A stretch of DNA of 64,000 nucleotides from assembly GCF_011065895.1 (NCBI RefSeq), contig NZ_JAALCR010000031.1:1-64000 (forward strand), written 5' to 3'. Numbering within the stretch: the first letter of the stretch is position 1; every line of letters starts with the position of its first letter. Positions 8,347-12,508 of this stretch are shown piece by piece. The DNA comes from Paludisphaera rhizosphaerae (GTDB lineage: Bacteria > Planctomycetota > Planctomycetia > Isosphaerales > Isosphaeraceae). The translations under genes were made by a program, and so were the position numbers. A model generated the notes under the pieces. It made no database searches and was not told the origin of the DNA. It saw only the letters and a list, made by a program, of their open reading frames with translations.

Positions 8347-9543
8347 ATGACGATCCGCCCCCTGCCGACATGGCTCGCTTTGCTGTTCCTCGCCGCATCG
8401 GCCTTTGGTCAGTCGCCGCCGCCGATGCAGGCGAAGCCGGAACTCTTCAACGCCCCGAAGAGCCGTCCCGCCGAGGGCTTTCAGAGCGACGGGCTCTCCG
8501 CCGTCTTCTACGAGGGGATGCCCTGGAAGGGGAAGCGGACCGAGGTTTTCGCCTGGGTCGGACTGCCGAAACTCCCGGCCGGCGAGAAAGCGCCGGGGAT
8601 GGTGCTGGTCCACGGCGGCGGCGGGACGGCTTTCGAGGCCTGGGTGAAGCTCTGGACGAGTCGGGGATACGCCGCTATCGCCATGGATACGACCGGAACG
8701 GTCCCGCGCGGGTCGTACGCCAAGTGGGAACGGCACGAAAACGGCGGCCCTCCTCCCGACCACTTCGGCGAAGCGCTCGGCCCTCCGGAAGATCAGTGGC
8801 CCTATCACGCCGTCTCCGATGTCCTGCTGGCGCACTCGCTGCTGCGGTCGCTCCCCGAGGTCGACGCCGACCGGATCGGCCTGACGGGGATCTCCTGGGG
8901 CGGCTACCTGACCTGCGTCGTCTCGGGCCTCGACGACCGCTTCAAGTTCGCCGTCCCCGTCTACGGCTGCGGGTTCCTCGGCGAGAACTCAACGTGGAAG
9001 GATCAGCTCGGGAAGATGGGCCCGGCCGGCGAACGCTGGCTGGCGCTCTGGGATCCGTCCCACTACCTGCCCAAGGGCGTCATGCCGAAGCTCTGGGTGA
9101 CGGGCACCAACGATTTCGCCTACCCGCTCGACTCGCTGCAGAAGTCGTACCGGGCTGCCGGCGGCCCCTCGACGCTGGCCGTCCGACTCCGCATGCCCCA
9201 CGGCCACGGCGGCGCCGGCGAGAACCCCGAGGAAATCCACGCCTTCGCCGACTCCATCCTCAAGGGCGGCCCTCCCCTCCCTCGCATAGGCAAACTCGAA
9301 ACCCAGGAAGACCGCGTCCAGGCGTCGTACGAGCCCCACACCCCCGTCCAGAAGGCCGAACTGCTCTGGACGGCCGACCTCGGCAAATGGTCAGACCGAA
9401 AATGGGAGTCGAAGGCGGCCGAAATCGACCAGGCGGCCAAGCGCGTCTCCGCGCCTGTGCCGACCGGAGCCCGAGTCTACTTCCTGAACCTGTACGACGA
9501 CCAGGGACGCGTCGTCAGCACGGAGCACGCGGAGGCACCCTAA
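8347..9543 (+). CDS. Exported alpha/beta hydrolase (acetylxylan esterase / prolyl oligopeptidase type)
   Basis: A 398-residue secreted esterase-like enzyme. Residues 1-21 form a signal peptide ending AFG-Q. An oxyanion-hole motif HGGGG is at 89-93 and the nucleophile elbow GISWGG has Ser183. The likely acid is in the WVTGTNDFAYPLDS segment and the base is His in MPHGHGGAGENP. The family cleaves ester bonds of acetylated sugars or peptides; here a role in plant polysaccharide use is inferred only. A C-terminal beta extension of about 100 residues follows the hydrolase core. It is convergent with the HNH gene, 54 bases apart. Confidence 0.88.
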   Translation: MTIRPLPTWLALLFLAASAFGQSPPPMQAKPELFNAPKSRPAEGFQSDGLSAVFYEGMPWKGKRTEVFAWVGLPKLPAGEKAPGMVLVHGGGGTAFEAWVKLWTSRGYAAIAMDTTGTVPRGSYAKWERHENGGPPPDHFGEALGPPEDQWPYHAVSDVLLAHSLLRSLPEVDADRIGLTGISWGGYLTCVVSGLDDRFKFAVPVYGCGFLGENSTWKDQLGKMGPAGERWLALWDPSHYLPKGVMPKLWVTGTNDFAYPLDSLQKSYRAAGGPSTLAVRLRMPHGHGGAGENPEEIHAFADSILKGGPPLPRIGKLETQEDRVQASYEPHTPVQKAELLWTADLGKWSDRKWESKAAEIDQAAKRVSAPVPTGARVYFLNLYDDQGRVVSTEHAEAP

Positions 9544-9597
9544 TCCAGGTCCTTGCCACACGGGTCCTTCAATGCCGTGCCGACGCCCGACCAGGTC

Positions 9598-10002
9598 TTA
9601 TCGACCCGGGAATCTGCCCTCTTCGATGAGCGCCTCGCGAGCGGCTACCATGTCTGGGTCATTGATCGCGAGAACCTCGATGGTGGTACGACCGATGGGA
9701 GTGCGCCCCTTGAGCACGGCTCCCGTCCAGGCGAAATGCTCGCGCCAGCGGTGAATACGGGGATGATAAAGCCGTGTAAATTCGCCCGTGCTGGGATCTA
9801 GCCCGGCGATATTCGGCCCCTTGTGGGCGTTGCAGTGAGGGCAGCTTTGCGCGAGGTTGTCAGCCTCGGTCGCGCCGCCGTGCTGCCGGGCGATGATATG
9901 GTCGATGGGGAAGGTGAATTCAGAGGCAAAGCGGGGGAGCCGGCAGTATTCGCAGCGTCCTCTCGCACGTCGCCGAACGCGACGTTCCAGTGTGGGCGTC
10001 AT
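9598..10002 (-). CDS. HNH endonuclease-like protein
   Basis: A 134-residue protein with a complete HNH core: zinc pairs C17-x2-C20 and C54-x2-C57, D34-H35, N49 and H60. It starts three bases after the stop of the 97-residue gene upstream, so the two are almost certainly co-transcribed. HNH proteins of this size nick or cut DNA. No homing-element, phage or restriction gene is adjacent, so the biological role is open. Sequence after residue 70 has no recognised domain. Confidence 0.87.
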   Translation of the reverse strand: MTPTLERRVRRRARGRCEYCRLPRFASEFTFPIDHIIARQHGGATEADNLAQSCPHCNAHKGPNIAGLDPSTGEFTRLYHPRIHRWREHFAWTGAVLKGRTPIGRTTIEVLAINDPDMVAAREALIEEGRFPGR

Positions 10003-10005
10003 GCT

Positions 10006-10299
10006 TTAGGACTTCAGCCCGGCGCGCTTAAGCGAGAGCCGAGCCTTCGACTTGAGCACAGAGAGAAAGGCGTCGGCGCGAAGGTATTCGTCAAGCTCGG
10101 CCCGCTCGTCCGCAGTGAGTCCAGCCTCCTGATTCTTCGCGAGCAAAGCGGCCACTCGCTCCTTGTCCTCTTCCGGAAACGTAAACTTCAGGATCGAGCG
10201 GGCGGCCTCCGGGTGCAAAGACGGGTCGTCGGGGTTGATGACCCGGCCGAGGATGGCCGCTCCGTTCTTCGATGATGTGCCGACGAGTCCTGTTGACAT
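10006..10299 (-). CDS. Small helical protein paired with the HNH nuclease
   Basis: A 97-residue soluble protein with no signal peptide. Its order is a short N-terminal beta-like segment (AAILGRVINP), a PEAARSILKFTF motif, an acidic helix with LTADERAELDEYL, and a basic end (LKSKARLSLKRAGLKS). I recall the combination with a downstream HNH gene from other planctomycetes and cyanobacteria, but no function is known to me. The arrangement looks like a regulator or inhibitor preceding its nuclease (inference). The acidic middle would be consistent with binding a basic nuclease. Confidence 0.75.
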   Translation of the reverse strand: MSTGLVGTSSKNGAAILGRVINPDDPSLHPEAARSILKFTFPEEDKERVAALLAKNQEAGLTADERAELDEYLRADAFLSVLKSKARLSLKRAGLKS

Positions 10300-10390
10300 A
10301 CCCCAATATTAGCACGGCGACTGGAGCGTATCCATGCCGGCCAGCCGTCGGACCAACGCTGCTACCCCTCACACATGCGACTTCATCAGT

Positions 10391-12508
10391 TCACGGCTTT
10401 TCCGCGTTGATCCAGACGGGCTGGGTGAAGGCCCCGTCGCCGGCGACGTCCCATGCCTCGAATCTCGCCCAGGTGCAGTTCTTGAGGTCGATTGGGATGC
10501 GAAGCTTGCGGGAGCCGAATTCCTCGGTGTCTGTGAGGTCGATGTGCTGGCGGAAGATGCGCCGGCCCTCGCCGGAGACGACCTCGGCGAAGGCCATGGG
10601 GAAGGTCCATTCCAGGGTCGCTTCCAGCATGACGGGCCCGTCGCCGATGGGTCCGAGGGTCTGGCCTGAGGGCTTGCCGCCGATGGTGAGATCCGGGATC
10701 AGGACCTCGCCCGTGGTGGTGAAGAACCGACCGCCGCGGAGGACGTCAAGCACCGGCTTCCAGCCGTCGGCGAAACGCGGCGAGGCGTCGAGCTTGAGGT
10801 AATTGATGTTCATGTGCGCGTAGGTTTCGTAGTCGGGCTCCATGCGGAACAGGTCCGCCTCGCCGAGGACCTGTTTCCGCGCGTCCCAGTTCTCCATGTC
10901 GTCGAGCAGGTCGAGCACGCGCCAGCCGAGGGTGGGCCGCGATAGGTCGGCCTGCATCGCCTTCCAGGCGGCGCCGAGGAAATGCTCGGAGCGGAAGAAG
11001 TCGCGGTCCTTGTACTTGTCGGGGAAGCCGATGGCCCCCTTGATCCGGGGATGGGCCGTCCACATCAGGCCGTCTTCCAACTCCATCAACCGGAGGACGT
11101 CGTCCGCGCTGCCGACTCGGTAGACCTTGCCGTAGCCCTCGACCTCCTCCACGAACGGCTGGCCGTCCTGACGGTTCAGCACCCAGTAGACCGGCTTCGG
11201 GAAGAAGCTCAGCCAATGTCCGCCCAGGTGGACGTTCGGCTCCTCGCCCGGCAGAACGAGCAACCCCTTCTCGGAGAGGCGGGCGCATTCCTCGTGCAGG
11301 AGCTTCAACTGCGGGAGCCGTTCGGCGTCGCCGAGCTTCGGGGTCTGGCCGTTGTGGAATTCGGCGAGGTGGACGATGTCGACCCCACGGGCCTTGAACG
11401 TCTCGACGAGTCCCGGCGTTTCGAGTTCGCGTGGGAGGCCCGTCGTCCCCTGATCCTTCTGCCGGCGAAGGTATTCGAGAGTGTGCTCGATGTGATAGTG
11501 GCTGGTGAACGTCTGATAGCCCGCCAGCACCTTGTATCGGTCGCCTCGCGTGTACTTCGCGACGGCGTCGAGAGCTCTGCGACCGTCGCCCGACGACACC
11601 AGCAGGTAGACGCCCAGGTGCTGCTCCGTCCCGGGAGGCGCATTGAACCAGGGGACGAATCGCTTATCCCCAGTAATGGATTGGCGGATCCCGATGCCGT
11701 ACCCGCTGGTAGAGCCGCCGTAGTCTCGGCCATGCCAGACGAATTTCAGGTTGAACGCCTCGTCCTGGGGGTAGAAGAAGCGATGCGGCTCCGGGAAAAC
11801 GGCGAGCGCCCCGCCGCTTGACTCGGCCGCGACGGACCGGCCGGCGACCGCGAGAGGAGTCGCCGGAGAGTTCGGATCGACCGCAGCCTTCTTCGGGGCG
11901 CGCAACGCATCGTTCCAGACGATCGCCTCCCATCCCGGACTCGCGCCCGCGAAGCCGACATCGTAGACGATCGCCCGTCCGTCCTCCTGCGTGGCGACGA
12001 CCGCTTCCGCCCGGATCAAGGGACTGTTGCGGTAGAACGTGAACCGAAGGTCCCCGCGAAACGACGCGGCGGAGACCTCGGCGATGCTCACGGTGGTCCT
12101 GGAGCCCAGGCTACTCACGACCGCCCGTCGCTTCCCCAGCACGACGGGATAGGTCTGGTGTGGACGCAGAGGAGGGTTGTCGAAGAACGCGACCCACCCA
12201 GCCGGGTTCTTCAGATCGCGGCTCCCCACGGTCAGAGTCATCACCGGGTTCAAGCCCGTCGCGACCGGCTTCACGCTCCCTTTTGCCGCTGTCGTCCCGA
12301 GCGATTCGATGAGGGGCTTCGCGGGATCGAGGCTGAAGACCGCCGAACCACTCTCGCCGTTGGAGATCGGCCAGGTCACTCGCACACGGTGGTCAGCCTC
12401 TTCAACCTGGACGCCCGAGTCGACGGCCCAGGCCTTCGGGAGGTCCAGCCAAAGCGAGCCGACGATGCAGGCCGTCCCGATCAATCGAAGTGTTCGCGTC
12501 ATCTTCAA
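10391..12508 (-). CDS. Exported PHP-type (CehA/McbA-like) metallohydrolase
   Basis: A 705-residue protein with a signal peptide (about 1-28, ending AWA). Residues 30-330 are a beta-rich N-terminal part. From about residue 335 the metal-ligand segments of a PHP domain appear in order: TSHYHIEHT, DIVHLAEFHN, LPGEEPNVHLGGHW and WTAHPRIKG. A beta-sandwich region closes the protein. PHP proteins hydrolyse phosphoesters or related bonds; secreted planctomycete members have unknown substrates. It lies 34 bases downstream of the amidase gene on the same strand and is probably the last gene of a run beginning at clpX. Confidence 0.75.
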   Translation of the reverse strand: MKMTRTLRLIGTACIVGSLWLDLPKAWAVDSGVQVEEADHRVRVTWPISNGESGSAVFSLDPAKPLIESLGTTAAKGSVKPVATGLNPVMTLTVGSRDLKNPAGWVAFFDNPPLRPHQTYPVVLGKRRAVVSSLGSRTTVSIAEVSAASFRGDLRFTFYRNSPLIRAEAVVATQEDGRAIVYDVGFAGASPGWEAIVWNDALRAPKKAAVDPNSPATPLAVAGRSVAAESSGGALAVFPEPHRFFYPQDEAFNLKFVWHGRDYGGSTSGYGIGIRQSITGDKRFVPWFNAPPGTEQHLGVYLLVSSGDGRRALDAVAKYTRGDRYKVLAGYQTFTSHYHIEHTLEYLRRQKDQGTTGLPRELETPGLVETFKARGVDIVHLAEFHNGQTPKLGDAERLPQLKLLHEECARLSEKGLLVLPGEEPNVHLGGHWLSFFPKPVYWVLNRQDGQPFVEEVEGYGKVYRVGSADDVLRLMELEDGLMWTAHPRIKGAIGFPDKYKDRDFFRSEHFLGAAWKAMQADLSRPTLGWRVLDLLDDMENWDARKQVLGEADLFRMEPDYETYAHMNINYLKLDASPRFADGWKPVLDVLRGGRFFTTTGEVLIPDLTIGGKPSGQTLGPIGDGPVMLEATLEWTFPMAFAEVVSGEGRRIFRQHIDLTDTEEFGSRKLRIPIDLKNCTWARFEAWDVAGDGAFTQPVWINAEKP

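What the first reader, a model, noticed from the sequence alone, without database searches (positions are those of the whole stretch)
9598..10299. HNH nuclease translated 3 bases after a small acidic-helix partner
Gap of 3 bases and conserved small partner suggest a regulated nuclease pair, possibly toxin-antitoxin-like or defence. The partner is too small to be a methylase and has no DNA-binding motif that I can see.
Basis: partly seen in the sequence, partly recalled or inferred. Interest (0 to 1): 0.5.

Follow-up and report, generated by a model that had tools for sequence, protein, structure and literature searches.

The report
HNH nuclease with toxin-antitoxin-like partner
A small gene and the nuclease gene right behind it form a widespread, often repeated and sometimes plasmid-borne pair that looks like an unnamed toxin-antitoxin family whose toxin would be an HNH nuclease; toxicity itself is untested.

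Summary
The pair is real: a 97-aa gene (10006-10299, minus) and, 3 bases on, a 134-aa HNH nuclease gene (9598-10002, minus). It belongs to a large two-gene family. A partner profile seeded from 16 sequences finds the partner just upstream in 75 of 82 HNH loci (64 of 71 distinct held-out places), with no stray hit at E<=0.01 in 3745 ORFs; of 20 loci with other or fragmentary HNH genes one has it. The partner's C-terminal helical hairpin is shared, its N-terminus varies; a few members match RHH, RelB, Phd or HTH models, mostly weakly. Pairs occur in several phyla, with up to 19 HNH matches per genome, fragments included; the nuclease is on 34 cyanobacterial plasmids. Partner and nuclease distances correlate, also among 14 pairs of one genome bin (r=0.70). 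Most likely it is a type II toxin-antitoxin-like module with an HNH nuclease toxin. Toxicity, neutralisation and substrate (DNA or RNA) are untested. The window's partner has no recognised DNA-binding domain and is not acidic overall. I found no library entry or paper naming the pair.

The parts
10006..10299 (-). Partner gene (putative antitoxin), 97 aa; first gene of the pair
   Evidence: homologues directly upstream of HNH genes with 27, 38, 64, 72
10024..10167 (-). Conserved C-terminal helical hairpin of the partner (about residues 45-92; L52, L61 and E65 nearly invariant in 99 partners); putative nuclease-binding part
   Evidence: conservation; predicted helices, pLDDT above 90 for much of it; weak DUF896/YnzC likeness
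10003..10005 (-). 3-base gap between the partner's stop codon and the nuclease's ATG
9598..10002 (-). HNH nuclease gene (putative toxin), 134 aa
   Evidence: (PF01844, PF14279)
9814..9969 (-). HNH/zinc core of the nuclease (residues 12-63: C17, C20, H35, N49, C54, C57, N58, K61)
   Evidence: invariant and nearly invariant columns

Best explanation
The two genes are a type II toxin-antitoxin-like module. The upstream 97-aa protein is the antitoxin: its C-terminal helical hairpin, the part common to the family, binds and silences the HNH nuclease made from the same message; in some relatives an N-terminal DNA-binding head would also repress the operon. The downstream HNH protein is the toxin, a small metal-dependent nuclease that would cut cellular nucleic acid (most likely DNA) when free. 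When the antitoxin is lost (plasmid loss, stress, possibly infection) the nuclease is freed. Shown here: gene order, cross-phylum conservation of the pair, correlated evolution, multi-copy and plasmid occurrence, conserved HNH motif, partners beside broken nuclease genes. Inferred: co-transcription, binding, neutralisation, toxicity, substrate, autoregulation.
For: Pairing: the 12 partner hits (in 6 of 294 Planctomycetota genomes) all lie directly upstream of HNH-profile hits, one of them a fragment; 75 of 82 HNH loci have a profile partner with 0 stray hits at E<=0.01 among 3745 ORFs; in 15 genomes 62 of 76 partner hits are adjacent to HNH hits and 56 of 68 full-length HNH genes have a profile partner. 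Of the 12 others, by eye, 9 have a small upstream ORF with a related motif, 2 doubtfully, 1 none. Control: of 20 loci with other or fragmentary HNH genes one has the partner, and its HNH is a 51-residue piece of this family. Decay: of 14 non-adjacent partner hits 6 have a broken or interrupted HNH beside them. Correlated evolution: Mantel r 0.72 over 99 pairs, 0.70 over 14 pairs of one genome bin, 0 of 2000 shuffles each; sets of 5 to 7 pairs r 0.72-0.89, 1 to 19 of 2000 shuffles as high. Mobility: nuclease on 34 plasmids, partner present in the 8 examined, ParA/ParB directly downstream in one, other toxin or antitoxin genes in the stretches; 2 to 19 matches in 9 of 9 genomes searched; phyla mixed on the HNH tree. 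Precedent that an HNH DNase can kill its own cell: MSMEG_1275 of M. smegmatis (PMC9416677, abstract).
Against: No toxicity or binding data. One full-length HNH locus has no partner-like ORF at all (L088). 8 of 14 non-adjacent partner hits have no HNH remnant; two of these (L221, L225) look like another protein. Broken partners beside intact nucleases were not looked for, so the decay asymmetry is only half tested. Of the 15 Pfam families matched by any of 99 partners only 5 are antitoxin or DNA-binding families, few members match them and their positions were not shown. The model of one supposed RHH partner shows no strand. No promoter and only short chance-like repeats upstream. The read-through model failed on the nuclease half. 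The 14-pair genome bin carries a species label that does not fit and may be mixed.
Confidence: 0.72

Rival explanations
1. The partner is an activating or targeting subunit: the two proteins form one nuclease aimed at foreign nucleic acid (restriction- or defence-like), and the partner's variable N-terminus sets the target.
For: Correlated evolution and constant pairing fit an obligate complex as well. Variable N-termini could be target readers. PADLOC's best HNH matches are Septu PtuB.
Against: The partner is about 100 aa with no recognised catalytic or ATPase domain; partners persist beside broken nuclease genes in 6 places, which an activating subunit has no reason to do; multi-copy sets and a place next to ParA/ParB are more TA-like.
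Confidence: 0.15
2. Free-standing selfish (homing-type) HNH endonuclease with a small accessory or regulator gene.
For: HNH genes are common homing enzymes (recalled); patchy distribution and plasmid carriage; an integrase or recombinase gene follows the nuclease in 4 of 8 plasmids examined.
Against: A cognate, co-varying partner is atypical for homing enzymes (recalled); no match in 50,697 phage records; the two insertions seen break the HNH gene rather than carry it.
Confidence: 0.06
3. A Septu-like or other multi-gene defence system of which only the HNH effector and a small protein are seen.
For: PtuB profiles match the HNH core (best E 1.2e-9, residues 4-62).
Against: No PtuA ATPase among the four large neighbouring ORFs scanned: an esterase-like protein, a 705-aa protein without family, an amidase and a phosphoesterase. 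By their annotation no third gene is common to all 8 plasmid stretches. 0 of 99 partners match PADLOC at E<=0.001.
Confidence: 0.04

Closest known systems
Type II toxin-antitoxin modules with antitoxin-first operons (VapBC, FitAB and the like; features recalled)
   Same: Two short, closely spaced genes with the putative antitoxin first, modular partner (varying head plus common tail), multi-copy, plasmid-linked, patchy.
   Different: The toxin would be an HNH nuclease, not PIN, RelE or MazF; the window's partner has no recognised DNA-binding head. The term HNH does not occur in the main text of Makarova 2009 (PMC2701414) or Kopfmann 2016 (PMC4963859) (term searches).
Septu PtuB (HNH) and other PADLOC HNH effectors
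   Same: HNH core alignable with PtuB profiles.
   Different: No PtuA ATPase beside it; 134 aa against PtuB profiles of about 204-310 positions. NetFlax (PMC10440598) mentions HNH once, as in PtuB (passage).
M. smegmatis MSMEG_1275 HNH nuclease with ArsR regulator MSMEG_6762
   Same: An HNH DNase whose raised expression kills its own cell (abstract of PMC9416677).
   Different: Its expression goes up with an ArsR regulator; no cognate small partner in the abstract or the passages seen.
Colicin-type HNH DNases with immunity proteins (recalled)
   Same: HNH nuclease plus small helical inhibitor.
   Different: Those are secreted multi-domain toxins; here a 134-aa protein without room for an export part, and the small gene comes first.
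YnzC/UPF0291 (DUF896)
   Same: Helical hairpin resembling the partner's C-terminal part (profile E 5.1e-4; 5 of 99 partners match DUF896, best 1e-4).
   Different: Different length; no HNH link known to me; the likeness may be generic.

Membership tests
Type II toxin-antitoxin system | Two small, closely spaced genes kept together | tested here: met
Type II toxin-antitoxin system | Correlated evolution of the two proteins | tested here: met
   r 0.72 (99 pairs), 0.70 (14 pairs of one genome bin)
Type II toxin-antitoxin system | Spread on mobile elements, patchy and multi-copy | tested here: met
   10 of 294 genomes at E<=1e-25; 60 of 244; 34 plasmids; 12 of 15
Type II toxin-antitoxin system | Antitoxin with DNA-binding domain and autoregulation | tested here: inconclusive
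   HTH_17 above cut-off in the gene upstream of the L039 HNH, but that HNH is divergent, the gene ends 88 bases before it and the partner profile did not hit it; other matches few and weak; none for the window protein; no operator found
Type II toxin-antitoxin system | Toxin harmful alone, protein antitoxin neutralises it by binding | not testable with these tools
   needs expression and binding assays
HNH nuclease (PF01844) | Profile match and conserved zinc and catalytic-type residues | tested here: met
Septu (PtuAB) | PtuA ATPase beside the HNH gene | tested here: not met
   (four large neighbouring ORFs scanned)
Ribbon-helix-helix antitoxin (for some cyanobacterial and Chloroflexi partners) | RHH profile or fold | tested here: inconclusive
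   RHH_5 in 4 of 99 and FitA-like RHH in 1 of 99; below the curated cut-off where it was printed; model of the L022 partner lacks a strand

The most novel reading that the evidence does not exclude
A previously unnamed cross-phylum toxin-antitoxin superfamily: one antitoxin tail (helical hairpin) dedicated to HNH nuclease toxins, carried on interchangeable DNA-binding heads, common in cyanobacteria and in the window's planctomycete family and used for plasmid maintenance; its toxins kill by cutting nucleic acid.
Probability: 0.5. Interest if true: 0.65.

Novelty: new variant of a known kind. Interest (0 to 1): 0.52.

Why it matters
Type II toxins known to me are mostly RNases or protein modifiers; a widespread module with an HNH nuclease toxin would add a DNA-damage (or RNA-cutting) branch, give a function to many genes now annotated as 'HNH endonuclease' plus 'hypothetical protein' (so in the 8 plasmids examined), and offer a directly testable plasmid-maintenance system in genetically tractable cyanobacteria.

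Tried and rejected
Septu: rejected, no PtuA seen. Colicin/immunity pair: rejected on architecture (recalled features). Phage origin: no match in 50,697 phage records; in viral contigs one weak match over about 50 residues. Operator or promoter upstream: no promoter-like site, only short repeats such as an AATATT palindrome at 10305-10310. Conserved neighbourhood: the two flanking genes lie at different places in the five same-genus genomes (in one of them, G550, one flank is at a contig edge), and none of the relatives' loci carries the pair within the 1.5 kb fetched; one, in another family, has an ordinary HNH gene. Complex model: partner and nuclease read through the partner's stop as one chain; the partner half was confident, the nuclease half was not, so nothing is concluded about the interface. 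RHH fold test by a model of the L022 partner: not confirmed. Fold searches: no match at E<=0.001. Literature: 10 searches, judged from listings plus passages of seven papers; none seen names this pair, but only open-licence papers are held and one survey of new TA families was not held. Rows dropped: I left out six weaker HNH rows (E 3.5e-12 to 7.5e-11) in those genomes as ordinary HNH genes; 22 of the 99 pairs (other phyla) were left out; two of the 25 loci (L040, L041) were not read; one of ten loci (L024) was not held.

Full report
WHAT IS THERE. On the minus strand a 97-aa ORF (10006-10299) is followed after three bases by a 134-aa ORF (9598-10002). The second is an HNH nuclease (PF01844 E 7e-11, PF14279 E 4.3e-7). 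In 19 aligned sequences, the window's included, C17, C20, H35, N49, C57, N58 and K61 are invariant, C54 nearly so, and a distinctive tail (PR..W..HF ... T..GR.T...L..N) follows the core. The first gene matches nothing reliably in Pfam, NCBIfam, PADLOC or PHROGs. It is not acidic overall (pI 8.0), only its middle is.

THE PAIR IS A FAMILY. One genome scan with the nuclease returned 25 loci named as planctomycetes, Phycisphaerales, Verrucomicrobia, Chloroflexi, a Gloeobacterales cyanobacterium, Thiomargarita and others (most are metagenome bins, so single names may be wrong, for instance one bin labelled Klebsiella). A partner-profile hit (E up to 0.0037) lies just upstream of the HNH gene in 21 of the 25; 13 of these 21 were in the profile's seed. 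In 294 Planctomycetota genomes the window's partner alone hits 12 places in 6 genomes, and each of the 12 lies directly upstream of a hit of the nuclease profile, one of them a fragment. The family proper (E<=1e-25; the next rows are at 7e-18 and weaker, some of them fragments) is in 10 of 294 genomes (my reading of the list), in 12 of 15 genomes of the window's own genus and family at E<=1e-15, and in 60 of 244 genomes of the phylum of L023, a Gloeobacterales cyanobacterium by title, at E<=1e-20. Nine genomes behind named loci hold 2 to 19 matches each at E<=1e-15, fragments included.

STATISTICS OF PAIRING. A partner profile seeded from 16 sequences finds the partner upstream of 75 of 82 HNH loci (72 at E<=0.001; -8 to 43 bases from the start of the HNH alignment), with no other hit at E<=0.01 among 3745 ORFs. 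Ten of the 75 were in the seed and one place is counted twice (L051/L107), leaving 64 of 71 held-out places. Of the seven without a hit, five (L105, L110, L131, L134, L135) have a small upstream ORF with a similar motif (by eye); L126 has none, but its HNH protein is identical in the part shown to that of a Rippkaea plasmid on which an IS4-family transposase gene lies between partner and nuclease; L088 has none. In 15 genomes 62 of 76 partner-profile hits are adjacent to HNH hits and 56 of 68 full-length HNH genes have a profile partner. Of the other 12, by eye, 9 have a small upstream ORF with a related motif, 2 doubtfully (L113, L233), 1 none (L088). As a control, 20 loci of weaker HNH hits have one partner hit, at L058, whose HNH is a 51-residue fragment of this family.

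DECAY. Of the 14 partner hits without an adjacent HNH hit, 6 have a frameshifted, truncated or interrupted HNH beside them (L213, L214, L215, L220, L224, L227); 8 have none, of which two (L221, L225) look like another, longer protein. Their downstream ORFs were only read by eye, not searched in a library; I recognised no other toxin there. The converse, broken partners beside intact nucleases, was not looked for. The window's genome has three copies: the window, an intact pair at C49, and one at C30 whose HNH gene is interrupted inside the zinc/HNH core by an element with a 714-aa large serine recombinase.

CORRELATED EVOLUTION AND MOBILITY. Distance matrices of 99 partner-nuclease pairs correlate (r 0.72), and so do those of 14 pairs in one genome bin (r 0.70; 0 of 2000 shuffles in both); four sets of 5 to 7 pairs give r 0.72 to 0.89 with 1 to 19 of 2000 shuffles as high. 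Within one genome the species tree cannot explain this, but the 14-pair bin has an ill-fitting label and may be mixed. On a tree of 77 of the 99 nucleases the planctomycete and cyanobacterial labels change 6 times, 5 forced by well-supported branches. 34 plasmid records carry the nuclease, all cyanobacterial by name. The partner is present in the 8 of 34 examined: in 7 the genes overlap by up to 11 bases or lie up to 9 apart, in one an IS lies between them. In Gloeothece Cy782204 the pair directly precedes ParA/ParB. An integrase or recombinase gene follows the nuclease in 4 of the 8.

HOW IT PROBABLY WORKS. The part common to the partners is the C-terminal helical hairpin (L52, L61, E65 nearly invariant in 99), predicted with high confidence. 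The N-terminus differs between groups. HTH_17 passes the Pfam cut-off in the gene upstream of the L039 HNH, though that case is doubtful (divergent HNH, 88 bases apart, no partner-profile hit). Of 99 partners, 4 match RHH_5, 2 RelB-like, and 1 each PhdYefM, FitA-like RHH and HTH_26 (E 7e-6) at E<=0.01; the ten other families matched are unrelated or of unknown function, and positions were not shown. The simplest reading is an antitoxin whose tail holds the nuclease and whose head, where present, binds the operator. The substrate is probably DNA by family, but RNA is open: the start of the abstract of PMC13096335, seen in the listing, says Septu cleaves a tRNA, and Septu's PtuB is the best PADLOC match here.

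WHAT IS KNOWN. Among solved structures the HNH core is nearest to Cas9/IscB-type nucleases. HNH is not mentioned in the main text of two TA surveys (term searches only) and once, as Septu, in NetFlax. The partner is named 'hypothetical protein' in all 8 plasmids examined. I therefore call it a new variant of the type II TA kind by anatomy, not a proven member: toxicity and neutralisation are untested.

Noticed in passing
G000:C30:46003-49617 (L044), own genome: Third copy of the pair: the HNH gene is interrupted in its zinc/HNH core by an element with a 714-aa large serine recombinase (Resolvase, Recombinase, zinc ribbon) and a DUF7674 protein.
   Followed up: partly
L040 / L227 (G301:C120): Another HNH gene of the family is interrupted near the same part of the core; the insert encodes a PemK/MazF-like toxin and a small upstream ORF. 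Two different insertions in one stretch may be chance or a preferred site.
   Followed up: partly
L148, L149, L252, L254 (cyanobacterial plasmids): An integrase or recombinase gene follows the nuclease in 4 of 8 plasmids examined; in two of them (L149, L254) two hypothetical genes follow as well.
   Followed up: no
L021:2078-4423: Tandem array of three partner genes and three HNH genes, two of the nucleases apparently shortened or internally deleted.
   Followed up: no
L088 (G300:C48), upstream of the HNH gene: The one HNH without a partner has a repeated translated motif (FNLLRSVEDIET) upstream, which looks like a CRISPR-type repeat array; not tested.
   Followed up: no
L025-L029, L038 (Fimbriiglobus, Gemmata, Phycisphaerales and other planctomycete bins), also L105, L228: A sub-branch with a different small partner (LGERKE.LT..E..ELLA.V.F...R..EKLEA), weakly or not hit by the partner profile yet in the same position.
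   Followed up: partly
window 8347-12508: The genes flanking the pair (esterase-like and a 705-aa protein without family) lie apart in the five same-genus genomes searched, so the pair sits at a synteny break (one flank at a contig edge in G550).
   Followed up: yes
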